Of a stretch of 64,000 bases of DNA, positions 8,602 to 17,058 are shown one piece after another (position 1 is the stretch's first letter; the number at the start of each line of letters is the position of its first letter). The notes below the pieces were generated by a model. It was not told the origin of the DNA and made no database searches. It was given only the letters and a program-made list of their open reading frames with translations. The position numbers and the translations under genes are program-made. Source of the stretch: Pseudomonas baetica (GTDB lineage: Bacteria > Pseudomonadota > Gammaproteobacteria > Pseudomonadales > Pseudomonadaceae); contig NZ_PHHE01000001.1 in the NCBI RefSeq assembly GCF_002813455.1, positions 6,045,001 to 6,109,000 on the forward strand, given 5' to 3'.

Positions 8602-9764
<1,163 letters not shown>

Positions 9765-10595: not shown

Positions 10596-10678
10596 GACCT
10601 GCAAAATCTCGGTCGGCCTGCACTTAAGTGAACGGCCTGCAATAAAGTTGACGACCTGCGTTTTTTTGGATAGCCTGT
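10596..10678. repeat. Five 19-bp iterons upstream of the ParA-like gene
   Basis: GRCCTGC starts at 10596, 10615, 10634 and 10653, exactly 19 bases apart, with a degenerate fifth (AGCCTGT) at 10672. The middle copies extend to GGCCTGCACTTAAGTGAAC and GGCCTGCAATAAAGTTGAC. A possible promoter (TTGACG at 10648, TAGCCT at 10671, spacing 17) overlaps the last copies. Such arrays before parA genes serve as centromere and/or operator in plasmid partition systems. Confidence 0.75.
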
Positions 10679-10709
10679 GGATCTCTCCCGAATGTTGAGG
10701 AATAGCACC

Positions 10710-11750
10710 ATGGCTGCTGGACTTTCAAGAATTATTGATAATCATGATCGGTCTCTAGAAGAGACCTATACTGCTACGACATCTTTCAAAAGAAAATCCT
10801 ACGCTGTGTCAAACCTGCGGGGTGGTATCGGTAAATCAACGCTGTCGTTCAATTTGGCGTGGATGTTTACTCGGCACCATTCAACGCTCATGGCTGATCT
10901 TTGTCCTCAGCGCAATTTCACCGAGTCCTTAATGAGGGGCGCGCGCCCCGAAATTACTATCGGTGATGCTTTGCGTCCTAAAGTACTTGGGCCAGCATTT
11001 GGTGATGTTCCTGAGGACATTTCTTATCGTGTAAGCTCCTACAATGATCATTTTAAGGGTGGTAAGCCTGGTTTTTTCGTACCCGGTGATGGTCAGCTCT
11101 TCGCATTTCCATCAGCACTTTATCAACAGCTTCAGCAAGCTATGGCAGCCAGCAATAAAAAAGCGGTCCATAATATTCTGTTTAGTTTAAAAACTATTCT
11201 GGAGGCAGAGGCAAAAGAGAAAAAGTGTGAAAAAATTCTGATGGACTGCAGCCCCTTTTATGGGGGCGGTACTCACTTGGCATGGTGTGCTGCTGACGCT
11301 CTGATCATTCCAGTCCGCGTCGATGAGCACTCAATTGAATCGCTGGATATCACCCTAGATATGCTGGCGAATCCTGACAGCGACTACAATATTTGGGCCG
11401 ATCGCGCTGGCGGTATGAAACCTCCCAGAGTAGCTGCAATCGTGATGACGATGGTGGGAGCCCGCAGTCCGAAAAAAGGCGTTAAAGATAGAGCTTCACA
11501 AATGTATGTCGAAAAGGCTTACCAAGTTGCAGCAAAATATCCTGACCTTTTCGATGTAGATGATCCAGCAGATGCTTTCGCAATCACGGATGACTTTATG
11601 TCAGCCGGTCGCATCAGCGGTGCTGAAGGAATTCCAATTCCAAAACTAAAAGTTGGTCAGTTTCATACGGTCAACGGAAGCCGACTACAAGTAAACCAGT
11701 CGCAGAACAAGTATCGGAAGGAATTAGAGTATCTTTTAAGTATTATCTAA
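10710..11750 (+). CDS. ParA-like P-loop ATPase
   Basis: ATG 10710 (TTGAGGAA seven bases upstream) gives 346 residues. The deviant Walker A motif is at residues 36-43 (LRGGIGKS): the signature lysine of ParA/MinD proteins (KGGxGK) is arginine here, while the P-loop lysine K42 is kept. A Walker-B-like strand KILMDCSP is at about 174-181, followed by the usual switch region and ADALIIPVRVD. The family moves plasmids or large complexes by ATP-driven DNA binding. Iterons precede it, but no ParB-like gene follows; a terminator closes the unit. It could be a partition relic, a plasmid-like maintenance function of the prophage, or an unrelated defence or regulatory ATPase. Confidence 0.8.
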   Translation: MAAGLSRIIDNHDRSLEETYTATTSFKRKSYAVSNLRGGIGKSTLSFNLAWMFTRHHSTLMADLCPQRNFTESLMRGARPEITIGDALRPKVLGPAFGDVPEDISYRVSSYNDHFKGGKPGFFVPGDGQLFAFPSALYQQLQQAMAASNKKAVHNILFSLKTILEAEAKEKKCEKILMDCSPFYGGGTHLAWCAADALIIPVRVDEHSIESLDITLDMLANPDSDYNIWADRAGGMKPPRVAAIVMTMVGARSPKKGVKDRASQMYVEKAYQVAAKYPDLFDVDDPADAFAITDDFMSAGRISGAEGIPIPKLKVGQFHTVNGSRLQVNQSQNKYRKELEYLLSII

Positions 11751-12005: not shown

Positions 12006-12794
12006 TCAGCGCGAATACATCGCCCACCAGAACACATGTCCTAGAATCGCGATCTGCTGCTCCTGGATCTGCTGGAACGTGTAGTCCTCATCCGGATGCT
12101 CATCACGGTTGAAGCTGCGCAGGCGAAGCCCGATCGGAATACGGTAGACCTGTTTCACACGAAGCTGACCGTTGTGGTTGATAGCGTACATCTCGCCATC
12201 GACGATATCGCTGAGGGAGTTTTTCCCCACGTTAACGCCAACCGTAGCTCCGTCGCGCAGCACAGGCATCATGCTGTTCCCGCCAACCCTGACGCACTTC
12301 GCGTTACTGAACTGTACACCGTTATGACGCAGGTCTTTCTTAAAGAAGCGCAGCCGAGAGGTATCGCTTTCCTGAATAGCAAACCTTCCAGACCCAGCCG
12401 CCAGCTCAACTTCCTGAAGGAAAGGGACATAGACCTCGTCATCATCGAGCGGGGTTTCGTCGTCCCAGGTCTCGATAGTCCCAAGTTTTACGCTGGGATG
12501 GATGCGCTCTTGCTGGACAGTGGCAACCGTGGACATCAGCCGGGAGCTGACGTCTTGTGCGTCGAAATTCAACGCCTTCGCGAGCTTCAATAGCGCTTCC
12601 ACATTCAGCGGGACCTTGCCGGTGGCGTATTGGCTGAATGCACTTTGCCCAGACCATCCGCACGCCTCGGCAACATCCGCCTGCGTCAGGCTGCGGCCGG
12701 CAGCTTTTGCAGCTGATTTCCGCTGTTCGTAGATGGCCTTGAGCCTGGCGCTCTCAGCGACTTCTTCGGGGGTAAGGGGGCGGCGTATTTTCAT
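12006..12794 (-). CDS. cI: Phage repressor, CI/LexA-like (XRE HTH plus S24 peptidase)
   Basis: ATG 12794 gives 262 residues. The N-terminal XRE helix-turn-helix covers about residues 20-85 (LTQADVAEACGWSGQSAFSQ). The C-terminal S24 domain has the catalytic Ser in GGNSMMPVL and the Lys in LRVKQVY; the likely RecA-stimulated cleavage site is the Ala-Gly of VELAAGSGR. It keeps the prophage silent and should fall on SOS induction. Operators lie immediately upstream (12806-12880) and at PL (6556-6598). No clear ribosome-binding site precedes the ATG, so the mRNA may be leaderless or weakly translated, as for lambda PRM. Confidence 0.93.
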   Translation of the reverse strand: MKIRRPLTPEEVAESARLKAIYEQRKSAAKAAGRSLTQADVAEACGWSGQSAFSQYATGKVPLNVEALLKLAKALNFDAQDVSSRLMSTVATVQQERIHPSVKLGTIETWDDETPLDDDEVYVPFLQEVELAAGSGRFAIQESDTSRLRFFKKDLRHNGVQFSNAKCVRVGGNSMMPVLRDGATVGVNVGKNSLSDIVDGEMYAINHNGQLRVKQVYRIPIGLRLRSFNRDEHPDEDYTFQQIQEQQIAILGHVFWWAMYSR

Positions 12795-12805
12795 ACGGAC
12801 AAGAG

Positions 12806-12880
12806 TATTAGCAGAGCTGATACCCAAGCAAATAGCGCTGCTATTATTTTGTTGCTGATAAAAAGCAGCGCTGCTACTAT
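12806..12880 (+). promoter_or_regulatory. Right operator region and promoter PR
   Basis: TTGCTG (12852-12857) and TACTAT (12875-12880), 17 bases apart, form PR for cro. The spacer holds the perfect palindrome AGCAGCGCTGCT. Two more sites are AATAGCGCTGCTATT (12831-12845) and TATTAGCAGAGCTGATA (12806-12822). All are variants of one operator, giving three sites between cI and cro, the lambda-type arrangement. Confidence 0.8.
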
Positions 12881-12910
12881 CCATGGCAGATACCAAGCCG
12901 TGGAAATTCC

Positions 12911-13114
12911 ATGAAAAAGATCCCTTTGAGCAAATACCTAGAAGAGCACGGCACTCAAGCCGCGCTTGCTGCTGCTCTTGGCGTGAACCAGAGCGCGATC
13001 TCGCAAATGGTTCGAGCCGGCAGAAGCATTGAAATCACCCTTTATGACGACGGGCGCATTGAGGCGAACGAGATTCGCCCGATCCCTGCGCGGCCCAAAC
13101 GCACAGCAGCTTGA
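12911..13114 (+). CDS. cro: Cro-like repressor
   Basis: 67 residues, divergent from cI and downstream of PR. A helix-turn-helix is visible (TQAALAAALGVNQSAISQMV, residues 15-34) followed by a short beta-like tail (IEITLYDDGRIEANEIRP) typical of lambda-type Cro proteins. It should bind the same operators as CI and favour lytic growth. Confidence 0.88.
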   Translation: MKKIPLSKYLEEHGTQAALAAALGVNQSAISQMVRAGRSIEITLYDDGRIEANEIRPIPARPKRTAA

Positions 13115-13195
13115 AACGTTCGTTGCTGACTGCCTGAACAAATACTCTCCCACGCAATGGCAGCGCGCCACGGAAATAAATTTGAGGTTTTACGA

Positions 13196-13618
13196 ATGGA
13201 AGATTTTCTGCGGGCTTGCCAGAGCGCTGTCCTGGACAACGAAGCCAAGACCCTTGCTGCAAAGATGGGCGTTCCTCACGTTGGCCTGCTTCAGCGCGCC
13301 AATCCAGACAACGATGCACACCACCTGACCGTGGAGCATCTGTTCGGGATTCTGCTGCACACCGGCGACATGCGGCCTCTGGCTGCACTGGCGAACGAGT
13401 TTGGTTTCGACCTCGTTACGAAAACCGCGCCCGCGCCACAAGCGCTCACCAAGTCGCTGATCAATGTCGGCAAAGAGGTCGCCGATCTGACCATCGCAGT
13501 TCACCAGGCGCTGGATGACAACCACGTCAGTTCTTTCGAGAAAAACTTGATCCGCCAAGAGATCAATCACGTTCGGCAGAGCCTAGACGTGATGGATGCC
13601 TCGGTGAAGGCCGCCTGA
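13196..13618 (+). CDS. CII-family phage regulatory protein (CP76 type)
   Basis: ATG 13196 with GAGG upstream gives 140 residues; the frame to 13157 lacks a comparable site. The N-terminal half (MEDFLRACQSAVLDNEAKTL and following) with a helix-turn-helix-like segment and the helical C-terminal half fit the Phage_CP76/CII regulatory family. By position (after cro, before O) and family it should promote lysogenic gene expression. Confidence 0.8.
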   Translation: MEDFLRACQSAVLDNEAKTLAAKMGVPHVGLLQRANPDNDAHHLTVEHLFGILLHTGDMRPLAALANEFGFDLVTKTAPAPQALTKSLINVGKEVADLTIAVHQALDDNHVSSFEKNLIRQEINHVRQSLDVMDASVKAA

Positions 13619-13682: not shown

Positions 13683-13808
13683 ATGCAGAGCCAGCCAAAT
13701 TCTGGCAATACCCAGAACAATGTCGCGACACGTTTTCAGAGTTCGCAAAGCGTGTCGCAACACACGTCATCTCGTTCTGCCGAATTGAATATCGGAGCCT
13801 CGCTGTGA
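13683..13808 (+). CDS. Small phage protein upstream of O
   Basis: 41 residues from ATG 13683 (GAGAGG six bases upstream) to the stop at 13806-13808; rich in Ser, Gln and Asn. Its end overlaps the GTG start of the O gene by 4 bases (GTGA), which indicates translational coupling and supports both gene calls. No function known. Confidence 0.6.
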   Translation: MQSQPNSGNTQNNVATRFQSSQSVSQHTSSRSAELNIGASL

Positions 13809-14248
13809 GCGTTCAAGCAATGTCATGGGCGCTGTCTTTGTCCACGGCTGTTCTCAAGGACGCCAGTGCCCGGCACGTTCTGCTGTGCCTGGCCAACTAT
13901 GCCGGATCGAACGGCACTGGCGCGTTTCCGTCAGCTTCCACCCTAGCTCAGGACACCGGTCTATCCGAGCGCACCGTGCGTTACAAGTTAGATGACCTGG
14001 AGAAGTCGGGACTGATCAAGCAGGGCAATCAAGCGATTGCTGCTGTTCACATTGATCGCCATGACCGACGCCCAGTCGTTTACGACCTTCAAATATTGCG
14101 GGGTGCAAATGCTGCACCCCGTTCCGAACGGGGTGCAAATGACGGCACGGGGTGCAATCCACAACAGAACGGGGTGCAATCTACGACAGAACGGGGTGCA
14201 ATCTACGACAGAACGGGGTGCAGCGGCTGCACCCAATACGTCAATTAA
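13805..14248 (+). CDS. Replication protein O, N-terminal HTH part
   Basis: Starts at GTG 13805, coupled to the preceding gene. Residues about 1-95 form the winged helix-turn-helix domain of phage replication O-type proteins (SASTLAQDTGLSERTVRYKL). After the domain the frame runs through iterons and stops at 14246-14248. The expected C-terminal domain continues in another frame (stop 14618). The two identical 22-bp units at 14171-14192 and 14193-14214 explain this: removing one joins the frames exactly. The protein would bind the iterons and load the helicase machinery; in this copy it seems split. Confidence 0.82.
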   Translation: MSVQAMSWALSLSTAVLKDASARHVLLCLANYAGSNGTGAFPSASTLAQDTGLSERTVRYKLDDLEKSGLIKQGNQAIAAVHIDRHDRRPVVYDLQILRGANAAPRSERGANDGTGCNPQQNGVQSTTERGAIYDRTGCSGCTQYVN

Positions 14249-14618
14249 CCATCAGGTAACCGAACAGCAGCTGCAGCGCGAGTTTTCTGGCGTGGTCGAT
14301 GATCAGGATCGACAAGCTCTCGATGCTCTCGAAGATCCTCGCCAGCGCTTTTCGATGTTTGCCGACTGGGAGTTCAGCGCTAAACAGTTGGAAGACCAGC
14401 TTCGCCTGATGTGCTTGCCGATCTCATCGGCTACCGATGAGTTGATTAACTCGTTCAAAGGTTTCTTCATCGCCAAACCCGATACCCGTGACAACGCCGC
14501 CGGCTGGTGCCACCGCCTTGCCAAATGGATCAAGCGTGATCGCGCAGTGAAGTCCGGCGACATTGAGGAAGGGATGGATGCGACCGGTGACTGGACTGCC
14601 AAGGGGGTTCGGGTATGA
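14037..14618 (+). CDS. Replication protein O, C-terminal DnaT-like part (frame-split)
   Basis: The frame is open from about 14037 to 14618; no ATG in it has a good ribosome-binding site, so it was probably made as the continuation of the O gene at 13805. The real domain begins around base 14215 (AAAAPNTSINHQVTEQQLQR) and includes RFSMFADWEF followed by a helical region with NAAGWCHRLAKWIKRD, resembling DnaT-like single-strand-binding domains of phage and primosomal proteins. It ends by a 4-base overlap with the P gene. Confidence 0.7.
   Translation: MLLFTLIAMTDAQSFTTFKYCGVQMLHPVPNGVQMTARGAIHNRTGCNLRQNGVQSTTERGAAAAPNTSINHQVTEQQLQREFSGVVDDQDRQALDALEDPRQRFSMFADWEFSAKQLEDQLRLMCLPISSATDELINSFKGFFIAKPDTRDNAAGWCHRLAKWIKRDRAVKSGDIEEGMDATGDWTAKGVRV
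14100..14234. repeat. Iterons inside gene O: probable phage replication origin
   Basis: GGGGTGCA occurs at 14100, 14130, 14149, 14171, 14193 and 14215, plus inverted copies at 14113-14120 and 14228-14234. The last four are spaced exactly 22 bases, about two helix turns, with unit GGGGTGCAATCTACGACAGA plus AC. Iterons inside O are the layout of lambdoid origins. Two adjacent units are identical, indicating recent duplication. Confidence 0.82.
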
Positions 14619-15286
14619 AATCTGCACGCGATCTTATTGCCGAACGGCGAACCGACCCTACCTACAAGCCGACGTCCGACCCAGTAGTGGCCGAGGTTGA
14701 TCCATCGACCAAAGCTGTCATCGACGACTTGTTCCTGCGTCTTCGCGGTGCCTGTGGCGCATGGCGCCAGTCTTGGCCGACTGAGGCCGTGATGAACGCC
14801 TCGAAGCTTGAATGGCTCGGCGAGTTCATGCGCTCCGGGATCAACCGGATGGAGCAAATAGACCACGGCATGCGCGTCCTGAGTGCGAGTAAGTCGGCAT
14901 TTGTTCCGGCGCCTGGCGTTTTCGTTAGCTGGTGCTTTGCCCCTGAAGGGCTGGGATTGCCGAGCGTCGAAAAGGCGTACGCCCAGGGTCTTCGCAACTG
15001 CCATCCCGCTATGCGTGATTCGGCCAAGTGGATGCACGCTGCGGTCTACCACGCTACTGCGGCCGCTGGTTTTCATGGCCTGCCATTGCTCTCGCGTGAA
15101 CTTGGTTTGGCGAGCTTCGAGCGTCACTACTTGGCCCAGTGCAGGAAGATCTGGAAGGGTGAACCCCTAGGCTCTATCCCTATTGCTGAACTTGCTGCGC
15201 CTAAGCCTGATCGCAACCCCGAAGTGGGTAACACCGCTTTGGCCAACTTGCGCGCGATGCGTGCGGGGAGGGCAGAACGTGTGTGA
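14615..15286 (+). CDS. Phage replication protein P-like
   Basis: 223 residues, overlapping the O reading frame by 4 bases. The sequence (VIDDLFLRLRGACGAWRQSW, later EWLGEFMRSGINRMEQIDHG) and position after O match the replication protein P family, which delivers the host replicative helicase to the origin complex. The C-terminal half is basic. Looks complete. Confidence 0.8.
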   Translation: MKSARDLIAERRTDPTYKPTSDPVVAEVDPSTKAVIDDLFLRLRGACGAWRQSWPTEAVMNASKLEWLGEFMRSGINRMEQIDHGMRVLSASKSAFVPAPGVFVSWCFAPEGLGLPSVEKAYAQGLRNCHPAMRDSAKWMHAAVYHATAAAGFHGLPLLSRELGLASFERHYLAQCRKIWKGEPLGSIPIAELAAPKPDRNPEVGNTALANLRAMRAGRAERV

Positions 15287-15488: not shown

Positions 15489-15781
15489 GCTCGAAGAAGC
15501 TTCGCGCCTCGGCCAATGGCCAAGAGTGCACTGTCCGGATGCCAGGCATCTGCAATCACAATCCAGAAACCACCGTCCTCGCGCATCTGCCTTGCGGGCA
15601 GAAGGGCATGGGCATGAAAGGCTTTGACACCGTGGCGGTGTACGCGTGCAGCGCTTGCCACGACGTGATCGACGGCCGCGCCGCCGGCGAGATCGACTGG
15701 CAGGACGTGCCGCCCGCCATCGCCGAAACGCACGAAGCCCTGATCAGGGCTGGAATTCTCACAGTGAAGGGGGCCGCATGA
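15479..15781 (+). CDS. DUF1364 nuclease-like protein
   Basis: 100 residues. It carries the conserved pattern of DUF1364: CTVRMPGICNHNPETTVLAH followed by LPCGQKGMGMK and CSACHDVIDGR, with Cys and His residues laid out as in HNH/treble-clef nucleases. In lambdoid phages such genes occupy the ninR segment and are linked with recombination or resolution of replication intermediates. Overlaps its neighbours, as in a compact early operon. Confidence 0.82.
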   Translation: MRVSSKKLRASANGQECTVRMPGICNHNPETTVLAHLPCGQKGMGMKGFDTVAVYACSACHDVIDGRAAGEIDWQDVPPAIAETHEALIRAGILTVKGAA

Positions 15782-17058
15782 GTACCGCCGCGGTGAAAAT
15801 CACCGAAGCTGAGATTAAGCGCCAAGTGGCCGGCACCGTACAGGACGTACGCGACATTGAGAATAAGGGCCTGTACCTGCGCTTCAACAAGGCTCGAACC
15901 CGTGGCTCGTGGTACCTGGTGTTGAAGGGCAAGTGGAATCCCATCGGCACGTTCCCCGAGCTGACTCACAAGCAGGTTGTAGCGGCGCTGCCGTCGCTTC
16001 GGCTGCGTCTGGCCGCCGGGGAGGGCGCGAGCCTGTCGAAGTGGAACGCTGTTGGCGAACTGCTGGACTGGTTCGCTGACCGCATGTCGCGCGATCGTAA
16101 TCTGTCGACCAAACGCAAAAACACCGGCGCCTCGATCATCAAGTGCCACCTGAAACCGCGTCTCGGTGAGCTGCCCCTGATCGGCGTCGACAAGGCCGCA
16201 CTCGACACCCTGTTGATGTGGCCGCTGCAGGAGACGGTTTCCATCGACTACGTGCGTTCCGCGTTCCAGCTGTTGGCCCTGGCATTCCGGCAGGCGGCCA
16301 AGCTGGGGATGATCACGCCCAACCCGATGGCTGCGATCCGGTTCAACGATTTCTCCAAGGCGAAGGTCGGCATCAAGCCGTCTCGCCTGCGCGGCGTTCA
16401 ACTGCAAGGCCTGCTGCAACAGTTGGCCGAGGTCAAGGTCACCGCACCGCTGGATTCAATGCTGGCCCTGATGATGTTGTGCCACGGCACACGGATCGGC
16501 GAAACCCGCATGGCGCGCTGGTCGCACATCAGCTTGGCAGAGCGCGAGTGGTTCATACCGGCCGAAAACACCAAGACCGGCGTCGAACATCATCTGCCCT
16601 TGACCGAGCAGGTTTGTGCGTTGTTGGTCCGGTACCGTGAAGGGCAGCACGCCCGAGGTTACGACGGTCAGTTCCTGTTCCCGGCACGCAACGGCAAGGC
16701 GCTGGGGGAGGCTCAAGGCTGTGCCGTGTTTCGTCGGTTGGGGCAGGGCGAGTGGACCAGTCACGACTTGCGCAAGGTGGCCCGCACCGGCTGGGCAGAC
16801 CTTGGTATTGACCACCTGATCGGCGAGCTGCTGATCAACCACGCGATGGGGCACAACGTGAAGGTGTACATCCAGTCGGACGTGATGAGCCGCAAACGTG
16901 ATGCTCTCGAACAGTGGCACGCGCATCTAGATCAGAAGGGCTTTGCAATCATTCACGGATTGACCGGCTTTAGATTTGAAGATTCCGGTAATTCGCTGCA
17001 AGCCACAGACCATAAGGCCTGCAAGGCCATTGAAGAAACAACCATAGGCGAGGTTTAA
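15778..17058 (+). CDS. int: Tyrosine recombinase/integrase
   Basis: ATG 15778 overlaps the previous stop (ATGA) and gives 426 residues. The full catalytic set is visible: R239 in HGTRIGE, H329 and R332 in SHDLRK, H355 in NHAMGH, and the nucleophile Y364 in VKVYIQS. An N-terminal SAM-like core-binding domain precedes it (about 85-185). It should integrate or excise DNA at att sites, but it lies inside the replication module, about 25 kb from the right prophage boundary, not next to an att site. It may be the phage integrase in an unusual location, or a resolvase for replication products. Confidence 0.88.
   Translation: MSTAAVKITEAEIKRQVAGTVQDVRDIENKGLYLRFNKARTRGSWYLVLKGKWNPIGTFPELTHKQVVAALPSLRLRLAAGEGASLSKWNAVGELLDWFADRMSRDRNLSTKRKNTGASIIKCHLKPRLGELPLIGVDKAALDTLLMWPLQETVSIDYVRSAFQLLALAFRQAAKLGMITPNPMAAIRFNDFSKAKVGIKPSRLRGVQLQGLLQQLAEVKVTAPLDSMLALMMLCHGTRIGETRMARWSHISLAEREWFIPAENTKTGVEHHLPLTEQVCALLVRYREGQHARGYDGQFLFPARNGKALGEAQGCAVFRRLGQGEWTSHDLRKVARTGWADLGIDHLIGELLINHAMGHNVKVYIQSDVMSRKRDALEQWHAHLDQKGFAIIHGLTGFRFEDSGNSLQATDHKACKAIEETTIGEV

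What the first reader, a model, noticed from the sequence alone, without database searches (positions are those of the whole stretch)
13805..14618. Replication gene O split by duplication of a 22-bp origin iteron
Six GGGGTGCA iterons lie inside O; the last four are 22 bases apart, and the units at 14171-14192 and 14193-14214 are identical. The HTH part is in frame 2 (stop 14248), while the DnaT-like part is in frame 0 (stop 14618). Removing one 22-base unit joins the frames exactly. As 22 is not a multiple of 3, gain or loss of an iteron switches O between fused and split forms, which could act as phase variation of replication.
Basis: partly seen in the sequence, partly recalled or inferred. 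Interest (0 to 1): 0.7.

Follow-up and report, generated by a model that had tools for sequence, protein, structure and literature searches.

The report
Phage replication gene split by iteron
In a Pseudomonas prophage, one extra copy of a 22-base origin repeat that lies inside the replication gene has thrown that gene out of frame; sampled relatives nearly always keep the gene whole, so this looks like a recent damaging mutation and not a built-in switch.

Summary
Units 14171-14192 and 14193-14214 are identical, and the HTH part (stop 14248) and DnaT-like part (stop 14618) lie in different frames.

Of 273 distinct O regions with an array, the HTH frame reads at least 240 nt past the array in 262, runs off the contig in 9 and stops just past it in 2: this window (one unit more) and L104/L108 (one unit fewer). 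So relatives do have a fused O, and both gain and loss of a unit occur in nature. Third-codon entropy is 0.04 bits at iteron sites against 1.11 in the HTH domain: the array is constrained as DNA, as an origin would be.

Phase variation is not supported: split forms are rare and the other 235 arrays compared are not homogenised (exact lag-22 identity 10-20 nt; 37 here). Best reading: a recent frame-breaking slippage inside an in-gene origin, probably leaving the prophage unable to start O/P replication. Function of the split form is untested.

The parts
12006..12896 (-). CI-type repressor (HTH + S24 peptidase)
   Evidence: Pfam PF00717 4.4e-17, PHROG phrog_4 8.9e-45
12911..13114 (+). Cro-like regulator
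   Evidence: Pfam PF09048 1.2e-16
13157..13618 (+). CII-like activator (CP76)
   Evidence: Pfam PF06892 3.6e-25
13805..14248 (+). O, first part: winged-helix DNA-binding domain (HTH_36) plus part of the iteron-coded linker; 147 codons, GTG start, TAA stop
   Evidence: HTH_36 2e-12; phrog_1032 9e-50; phrog_678 'replication initiation O-like' 1.3e-18
14037..14618 (+). Open frame holding O, second part: DnaT-like domain at about 14349-14552; frame differs from that of the HTH part
   Evidence: PF17948 4.7e-9 on 14217-14615; phrog_1032 6.3e-13, profile 153-273
14100..14107 (+). direct iteron 1 GGGGTGCA
   Evidence: exact in 98 of 102 relatives
14130..14137 (+). direct iteron 2
14149..14156 (+). 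direct iteron 3
14171..14178 (+). direct iteron 4
14193..14200 (+). direct iteron 5
14215..14222 (+). direct iteron 6 (relatives of this layout have five direct iterons)
   Evidence: exact in 101 of 102 relatives
14164..14222 (+). exact period-22 run; holds the identical units 14171-14192 and 14193-14214
   Evidence: exact lag-22 match of 37 nt; 10-20 nt in 235 other distinct arrays
14615..15286 (+). P-like helicase loader; its ATG overlaps the stop of the second part of O
   Evidence: Pfam PF06992 5.4e-30, phrog_109 2.8e-55

Best explanation
This is a lambda-type O/P replication module in a Pseudomonas prophage whose origin lies inside the initiator gene. The array is normally five direct and two inverted GGGGTGCA sites coding for the linker between a DNA-binding N domain and a DnaT-like C domain. 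Gain of one 22-nt unit, most likely by strand slippage or unequal exchange between the short repeats already present in every array (inferred), moved the DnaT-like part out of frame. Shown: the extra unit, the frame difference, the fused state of relatives, constraint on the iterons as DNA, and a separate natural one-unit loss that also splits O. Inferred: the 147-residue product still binds the iterons but cannot recruit P, and P translation, whose start overlaps the end of O, also falls; on induction the prophage would therefore not start O/P replication. The iteron number looks bound by reading frame and not tuned for switching.
For: 262 of 273 distinct O regions read at least 240 nt past the array in the HTH frame, 9 run off the contig, 2 stop (window; L104/L108). 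In the layout 30,19,22,22 the five-iteron number is the rule. Iteron sites are constrained as DNA: third-codon entropy 0.04 bits against 0.64 in array spacers and 1.11 in the HTH domain, 63 thinned sequences found by protein or whole-region search. 57 of 62 homologues of the DnaT-like part list both HTH_36 and DnaT domains. L053 (fused) and L104 (split) are identical over the 360 and 357 nt of O compared on either side of the array, and align over 3.9 kb at 96% with one 22-nt gap: the change is recent. In lambda (passages of PMC6022878) the N region binds DNA, the C region binds P, a flexible linker lies between, and an amber allele still making 294 of 299 residues is defective.
Against: No expression, induction or replication data. 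The DnaT-like frame has possible internal starts (for example ATG 14139, GTG 14196), so a second protein could be made. The window's second part shows no further stop and is 99.5% identical in DNA to L003, so no decay is visible, as expected if the event is young but also if the split form works. Only one strain has the gain: the identical IMG/VR copy L032/L216 (10,441 of 10,441 nt) is probably the same strain. The AlphaFold model that shows the linker as unstructured is itself low in confidence (mean pLDDT 60.2, pTM 0.32).
Confidence: 0.75

Rival explanations
1. Phase variation: gain and loss of the 22-nt unit is a selected ON/OFF switch of phage replication.
For: The unit is not a multiple of 3; the window now has a 37-nt exact lag-22 match, which should slip more easily; gain and loss are each seen once; L104 and its fused counterpart L053 are identical in the O pieces compared.
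Against: 2 split of 264 judged; other arrays are diverged between units, 10-20 nt; scans of IMG/VR for the one-unit-shorter form found 2 contigs for one layout (near-identical to each other) and 0 for the other; the array is explained by origin function alone.
Confidence: 0.06
2. The split form still works: two separate polypeptides, or a full-length product by frameshifting, serve as initiator.
For: Both frames are open together over 14016-14245, the whole array included; possible starts lie in the second frame; P is intact in sequence.
Against: Nearly all relatives keep the fused form; no clear slippery site or strong ribosome-binding site was seen by eye; lambda O needs its C-terminal part in the same protein (PMC6022878 passages).
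Confidence: 0.12
3. Sequencing or assembly error: the extra unit is not in the strain.
For: Tandem repeats are a usual place for errors; only one genome carries the gain, and the IMG/VR copy is not shown to be independent.
Against: The periodic run is 59 nt, shorter than ordinary short reads; the genome is a single contig of 6,902,809 bases; the opposite change was assembled in two metagenomes with one mismatch in 5,674 nt.
Confidence: 0.05
4. The truncated O, which should keep its DNA-binding domain, acts as a blocker of related superinfecting phages by occupying their iterons.
For: Inference from domain layout; in lambda, plasmid-borne iterons inhibit infecting phages of the same replication type (passages of PMC3349717), though that effect needs oop transcription and is due to DNA sites, not to an O fragment.
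Against: O should be silent in a lysogen under CI; one strain only; no sign of selection for the split form.
Confidence: 0.02

Closest known systems
Phage lambda O gene / ori-lambda with P
   Same: Initiator with N-terminal DNA-binding part, origin iterons inside the gene, P-type helicase loader next (lambda facts from passages of PMC6022878 and PMC3349717)
   Different: Iteron is an 8-nt GGGGTGCA core in direct and inverted copies, five direct plus two inverted as a rule, not four 18-nt iterons; C part is DnaT-like by Pfam; no strong AT-rich tract beside the array; here the frame is broken
Stx phage O/ori (933W, P27)
   Same: In-gene iteron number varies between relatives: six against four in lambda (passages of PMC7466680)
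   Different: There two extra iterons are reported as needed for efficient replication and O is intact; here the extra unit coincides with a broken frame
phrog_1032 replication initiation protein of Pseudomonas phages
   Same: Both parts match the one family, N and C ends of the profile
   Different: The family profile is one protein of 281 positions; here it is two frames
Tandem-repeat phase-variable genes (contingency loci)
   Same: Repeat unit not a multiple of 3 inside a gene
   Different: Repeats are origin sites, diverged between units in the relatives compared, and split states are rare

Membership tests
Lambda-type O/P module with in-gene origin | Initiator gene followed by lambda-P helicase loader | tested here: met
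   PF06992 5.4e-30 at 14615-15286; phrog_109
Lambda-type O/P module with in-gene origin | Iterons inside the initiator gene, conserved as DNA | tested here: met
   third-codon entropy 0.04 against 1.11 bits
Lambda-type O/P module with in-gene origin | N-terminal DNA-binding domain related to O-like proteins | tested here: met
   HTH_36 2e-12; phrog_678 'replication initiation O-like' 1.3e-18
Lambda-type O/P module with in-gene origin | AT-rich unwinding tract next to the iterons | tested here: inconclusive
   Lowest 40-nt GC beside the array 0.45 at 14231-14275, against 0.57 for the gene; lowest in the gene 0.38 at 14431
Lambda-type O/P module with in-gene origin | O binds the iterons and P | not testable with these tools
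   needs binding assays
Lambda-type O/P module with in-gene origin | One continuous O reading frame | tested here: not met
   Stop at 14246-14248 before the DnaT-like part; met in 262 of 273 relatives' regions, the window's and L104's being the 2 that stop and 9 running off the contig. The module is of this kind; this allele is a broken one
Phase-variable (contingency) locus | Repeat unit whose gain or loss changes the frame | tested here: met
   Unit of 22; window and L104/L108
Phase-variable (contingency) locus | Homogeneous, slippage-prone tract kept in relatives | tested here: not met
   Exact lag-22 identity 10-20 nt in 235 other arrays
Phase-variable (contingency) locus | Both states common among close relatives | tested here: not met
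   2 split of 264 judged
Phase-variable (contingency) locus | Reversible switching within a population | not testable with these tools
   no reads held

The most novel reading that the evidence does not exclude
In these Pseudomonas phages the origin itself is a contingency locus: slippage of one iteron breaks or rejoins the initiator, so a lysogen population keeps a fraction of replication-dead, induction-proof prophages that can revert.
Probability: 0.06. Interest if true: 0.75.

Novelty: new member of a known kind. Interest (0 to 1): 0.3.

Why it matters
An origin placed inside its own initiator gene ties iteron number to reading frame: with a 22-nt spacing, any gain or loss of one or two units kills the initiator. 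The survey shows this constraint at work: a nearly invariant array in 102 in-register regions, and two natural breaks of one unit each. It offers a simple test of whether iteron number in in-gene origins is set by replication or by coding, and a warning that such prophages may be silently replication-dead. If switching were shown, it would be a new way of regulating prophage induction.

Tried and rejected
a guessed iteron pattern with 3 mismatches gave one unrelated match (L001), dropped; a first frame test by longest open stretch called 21 records of the standard layout split (plus a few of other layouts); this was an artefact of frame choice (for example L080, which has a 264-codon ORF). It was replaced, the latter anchored on the HTH domain. 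still flagged L080, L147, L175 and L184 as short; one search shows L080 has a full N match and L147, L175 and L184 lack one at E 1e-4 (L147 0.016, on the other strand). Rows dropped before the 273 count: 7 of 366 held loci without an N match, 2 of 359 without an array, and repeats of identical 700-nt regions.

Distinct regions are related by descent, so 262 of 273 is not 262 independent events.

Results against the tidy picture: P0061 and P0062 are short O-like proteins with most of the array missing, so O can break in other ways; P0015 and P0026 are DnaT-only proteins of 142 and 140 aa from short contigs that could be further split alleles or contig ends, not resolved.

Independence check of L032: identical to the window over 10,441 nt, so not counted as a second case. 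PDB sequence searches of each part: no match at E 0.01. Foldseek on the model of the natural relative P0003: no match at E 0.001; DnaT ssDNA-binding domain chains rank high at E 0.7-1.8. PMC2647930: its iterons are of a plasmid-like island, unrelated (passages). Programmed frameshifting was considered; no clear site was seen by eye and no tool test was made.

Full report
What is there. The window lies in a 6,902,809-base single-contig genome. The genus is inferred to be Pseudomonas: the same-genus genome G199 holds the O region on a contig of 240,854 bases (list), the length of the Pseudomonas sp. RIT-PI-r contig of L112. Around the finding are a CI-type repressor, Cro, a CII-like protein, the O-like initiator, a lambda-P protein and an HNH nuclease, then an integrase and a Q-like antiterminator. 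Further right, terminase, portal, head protease, major head, baseplate, sheath, tape-measure and Rz-like spanin proteins match PHROGs as single ORFs (20 proteins given, one in each call without a match). So at the level tested the prophage is not a wreck apart from O.

The observation. All stated coordinates hold. The iterons are not chance: two cores at 22-nt spacing occur 3 times against a mean of 0.02 in shuffles. The two identical units lie in a 59-nt exact period-22 run.

Origin evidence. In 102 distinct in-register regions found by whole-region or protein search (not by iteron pattern), each of the seven shared sites is exact in 98 to 102. In 63 of these, thinned at 95% identity, mean entropy at third codon positions is 0.04 bits in the sites, 0.64 in the array spacers and 1.11 in the HTH domain. 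This is strong DNA-level constraint inside a coding region, as expected for binding sites of an origin; binding itself was not tested. Five direct sites are read in more than one frame, so the sites are not kept for the amino acids they encode (from the spacings).

Relatives. The first set was 138 loci (30 from whole genomes of the genus, where 49 of 398 genomes had a match; 80 of 194 viral relatives; 28 from named genomes). Nearly all show spacings 30, 19, 22, 22 and an O of about 250-266 codons. With the pattern-based loci added, 273 distinct O regions remain: 262 read at least 240 nt past the array in the HTH frame, 9 run off the contig, 2 stop just past it. A second common layout, 30, 22, 22, 22, is fused as well (49 distinct). 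57 of 62 homologues of the DnaT-like part carry both domains.

The two exceptions. The window has one unit more (spacings 30, 19, 22, 22, 22; 147 codons). L104 and L108, from two metagenome assemblies with one mismatch in 5,674 nt, have one unit fewer (30, 19, 22; 136 codons). A pattern scan of IMG/VR for the shorter form found only these two contigs, and none for the other layout. A scan for four or more cores at 22-nt spacing gave 77 stretches; among them the longer form of the window's layout occurs only in the contig identical to the window. L053, fused, is identical to L104 over the 360 and 357 nt of O compared on either side of the array and differs by 4% over 3.9 kb, with a single 22-nt gap. 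Loss of a unit is thus recent there. The window's closest relatives are 96.7% (first part, L035) and 99.5% (second part, L003) identical.

How it most likely arose and acts. Every array compared has 10-20 nt of exact identity at lag 22, enough for occasional slippage or unequal exchange (inference). The result puts the second part in another frame; the first frame ends 11 codons after the last direct iteron's inverted partner region, at 14248. In lambda, from passages of PMC6022878, O has an N-terminal DNA-binding part, a flexible linker and a C-terminal P-binding part, an amber allele making 294 of 299 residues is defective (text and table give it different allele names), and a 24-bp deletion of one iteron abolishes O function. 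By analogy the window's allele should be null (inference). The P start overlaps the end of the second part (14615/14618), so P translation may drop too (inference). A model of the natural fused relative P0003 has pLDDT under 50 over residues 75-153, which hold the iteron-coded stretch, and folded parts on both sides; overall confidence is low (mean pLDDT 60.2, pTM 0.32).

Why not phase variation. Switch loci should show both states often and keep a homogeneous tract. Here 2 of 264 judged regions are split and units are diverged in the other 235 arrays compared. The window's allele itself, with 37 nt of exact lag-22 identity, may well be unstable and revert (inference). That is mutability, not an evolved switch, unless population data say otherwise.

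What is known. In-gene origins with iteron number differing between relatives are known: four in lambda, six in Stx phages, where the extra two are reported to be needed for effective replication (passages of PMC7466680). Paper searches (listings and abstract starts seen; one search had 0 papers) listed no report that I recognised of iteron gain or loss splitting an O gene, or of phase variation of a phage initiator; the library holds open-licence papers only. I therefore file the module as a new member of the lambda-type in-gene-origin kind, with a broken allele.

Noticed in passing
window 9030-9764: IS3-type transposase ORF (phrog_157 1.8e-97) within the left part of the prophage region; not examined for disruption of a phage gene.
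   Followed up: no
window 10677-11750: ParA-like partition protein (phrog_164 1.6e-42) upstream of the CI repressor, unusual beside an integrase.
   Followed up: no
window 15778-17058: Integrase (phrog_1) sits between the replication genes and the Q-like antiterminator, not at a phage end; L104 and L035 align over this stretch, so the order is shared.
   Followed up: partly
L007-L136, O gene: O is mosaic: N parts mostly 67-97% identical to the window's while C (DnaT-like) parts range from about 36 to 99%, suggesting exchange of the C part across the iteron array.
   Followed up: partly
P0061, P0062: Short O-like proteins in which most of the iteron-coded linker is missing and the C end is cut.
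   Followed up: no
L118 (NZ_JAHHIU010000317.1): An 8,442-base contig labelled Streptomyces sp. carries an 89% identical O part of this Pseudomonas phage group; probably a contaminant contig.
   Followed up: no
L147: Iteron array with spacings 22, 22, 22, 17, 17 lying on the opposite strand to a weak N-part match; a divergent arrangement.
   Followed up: no
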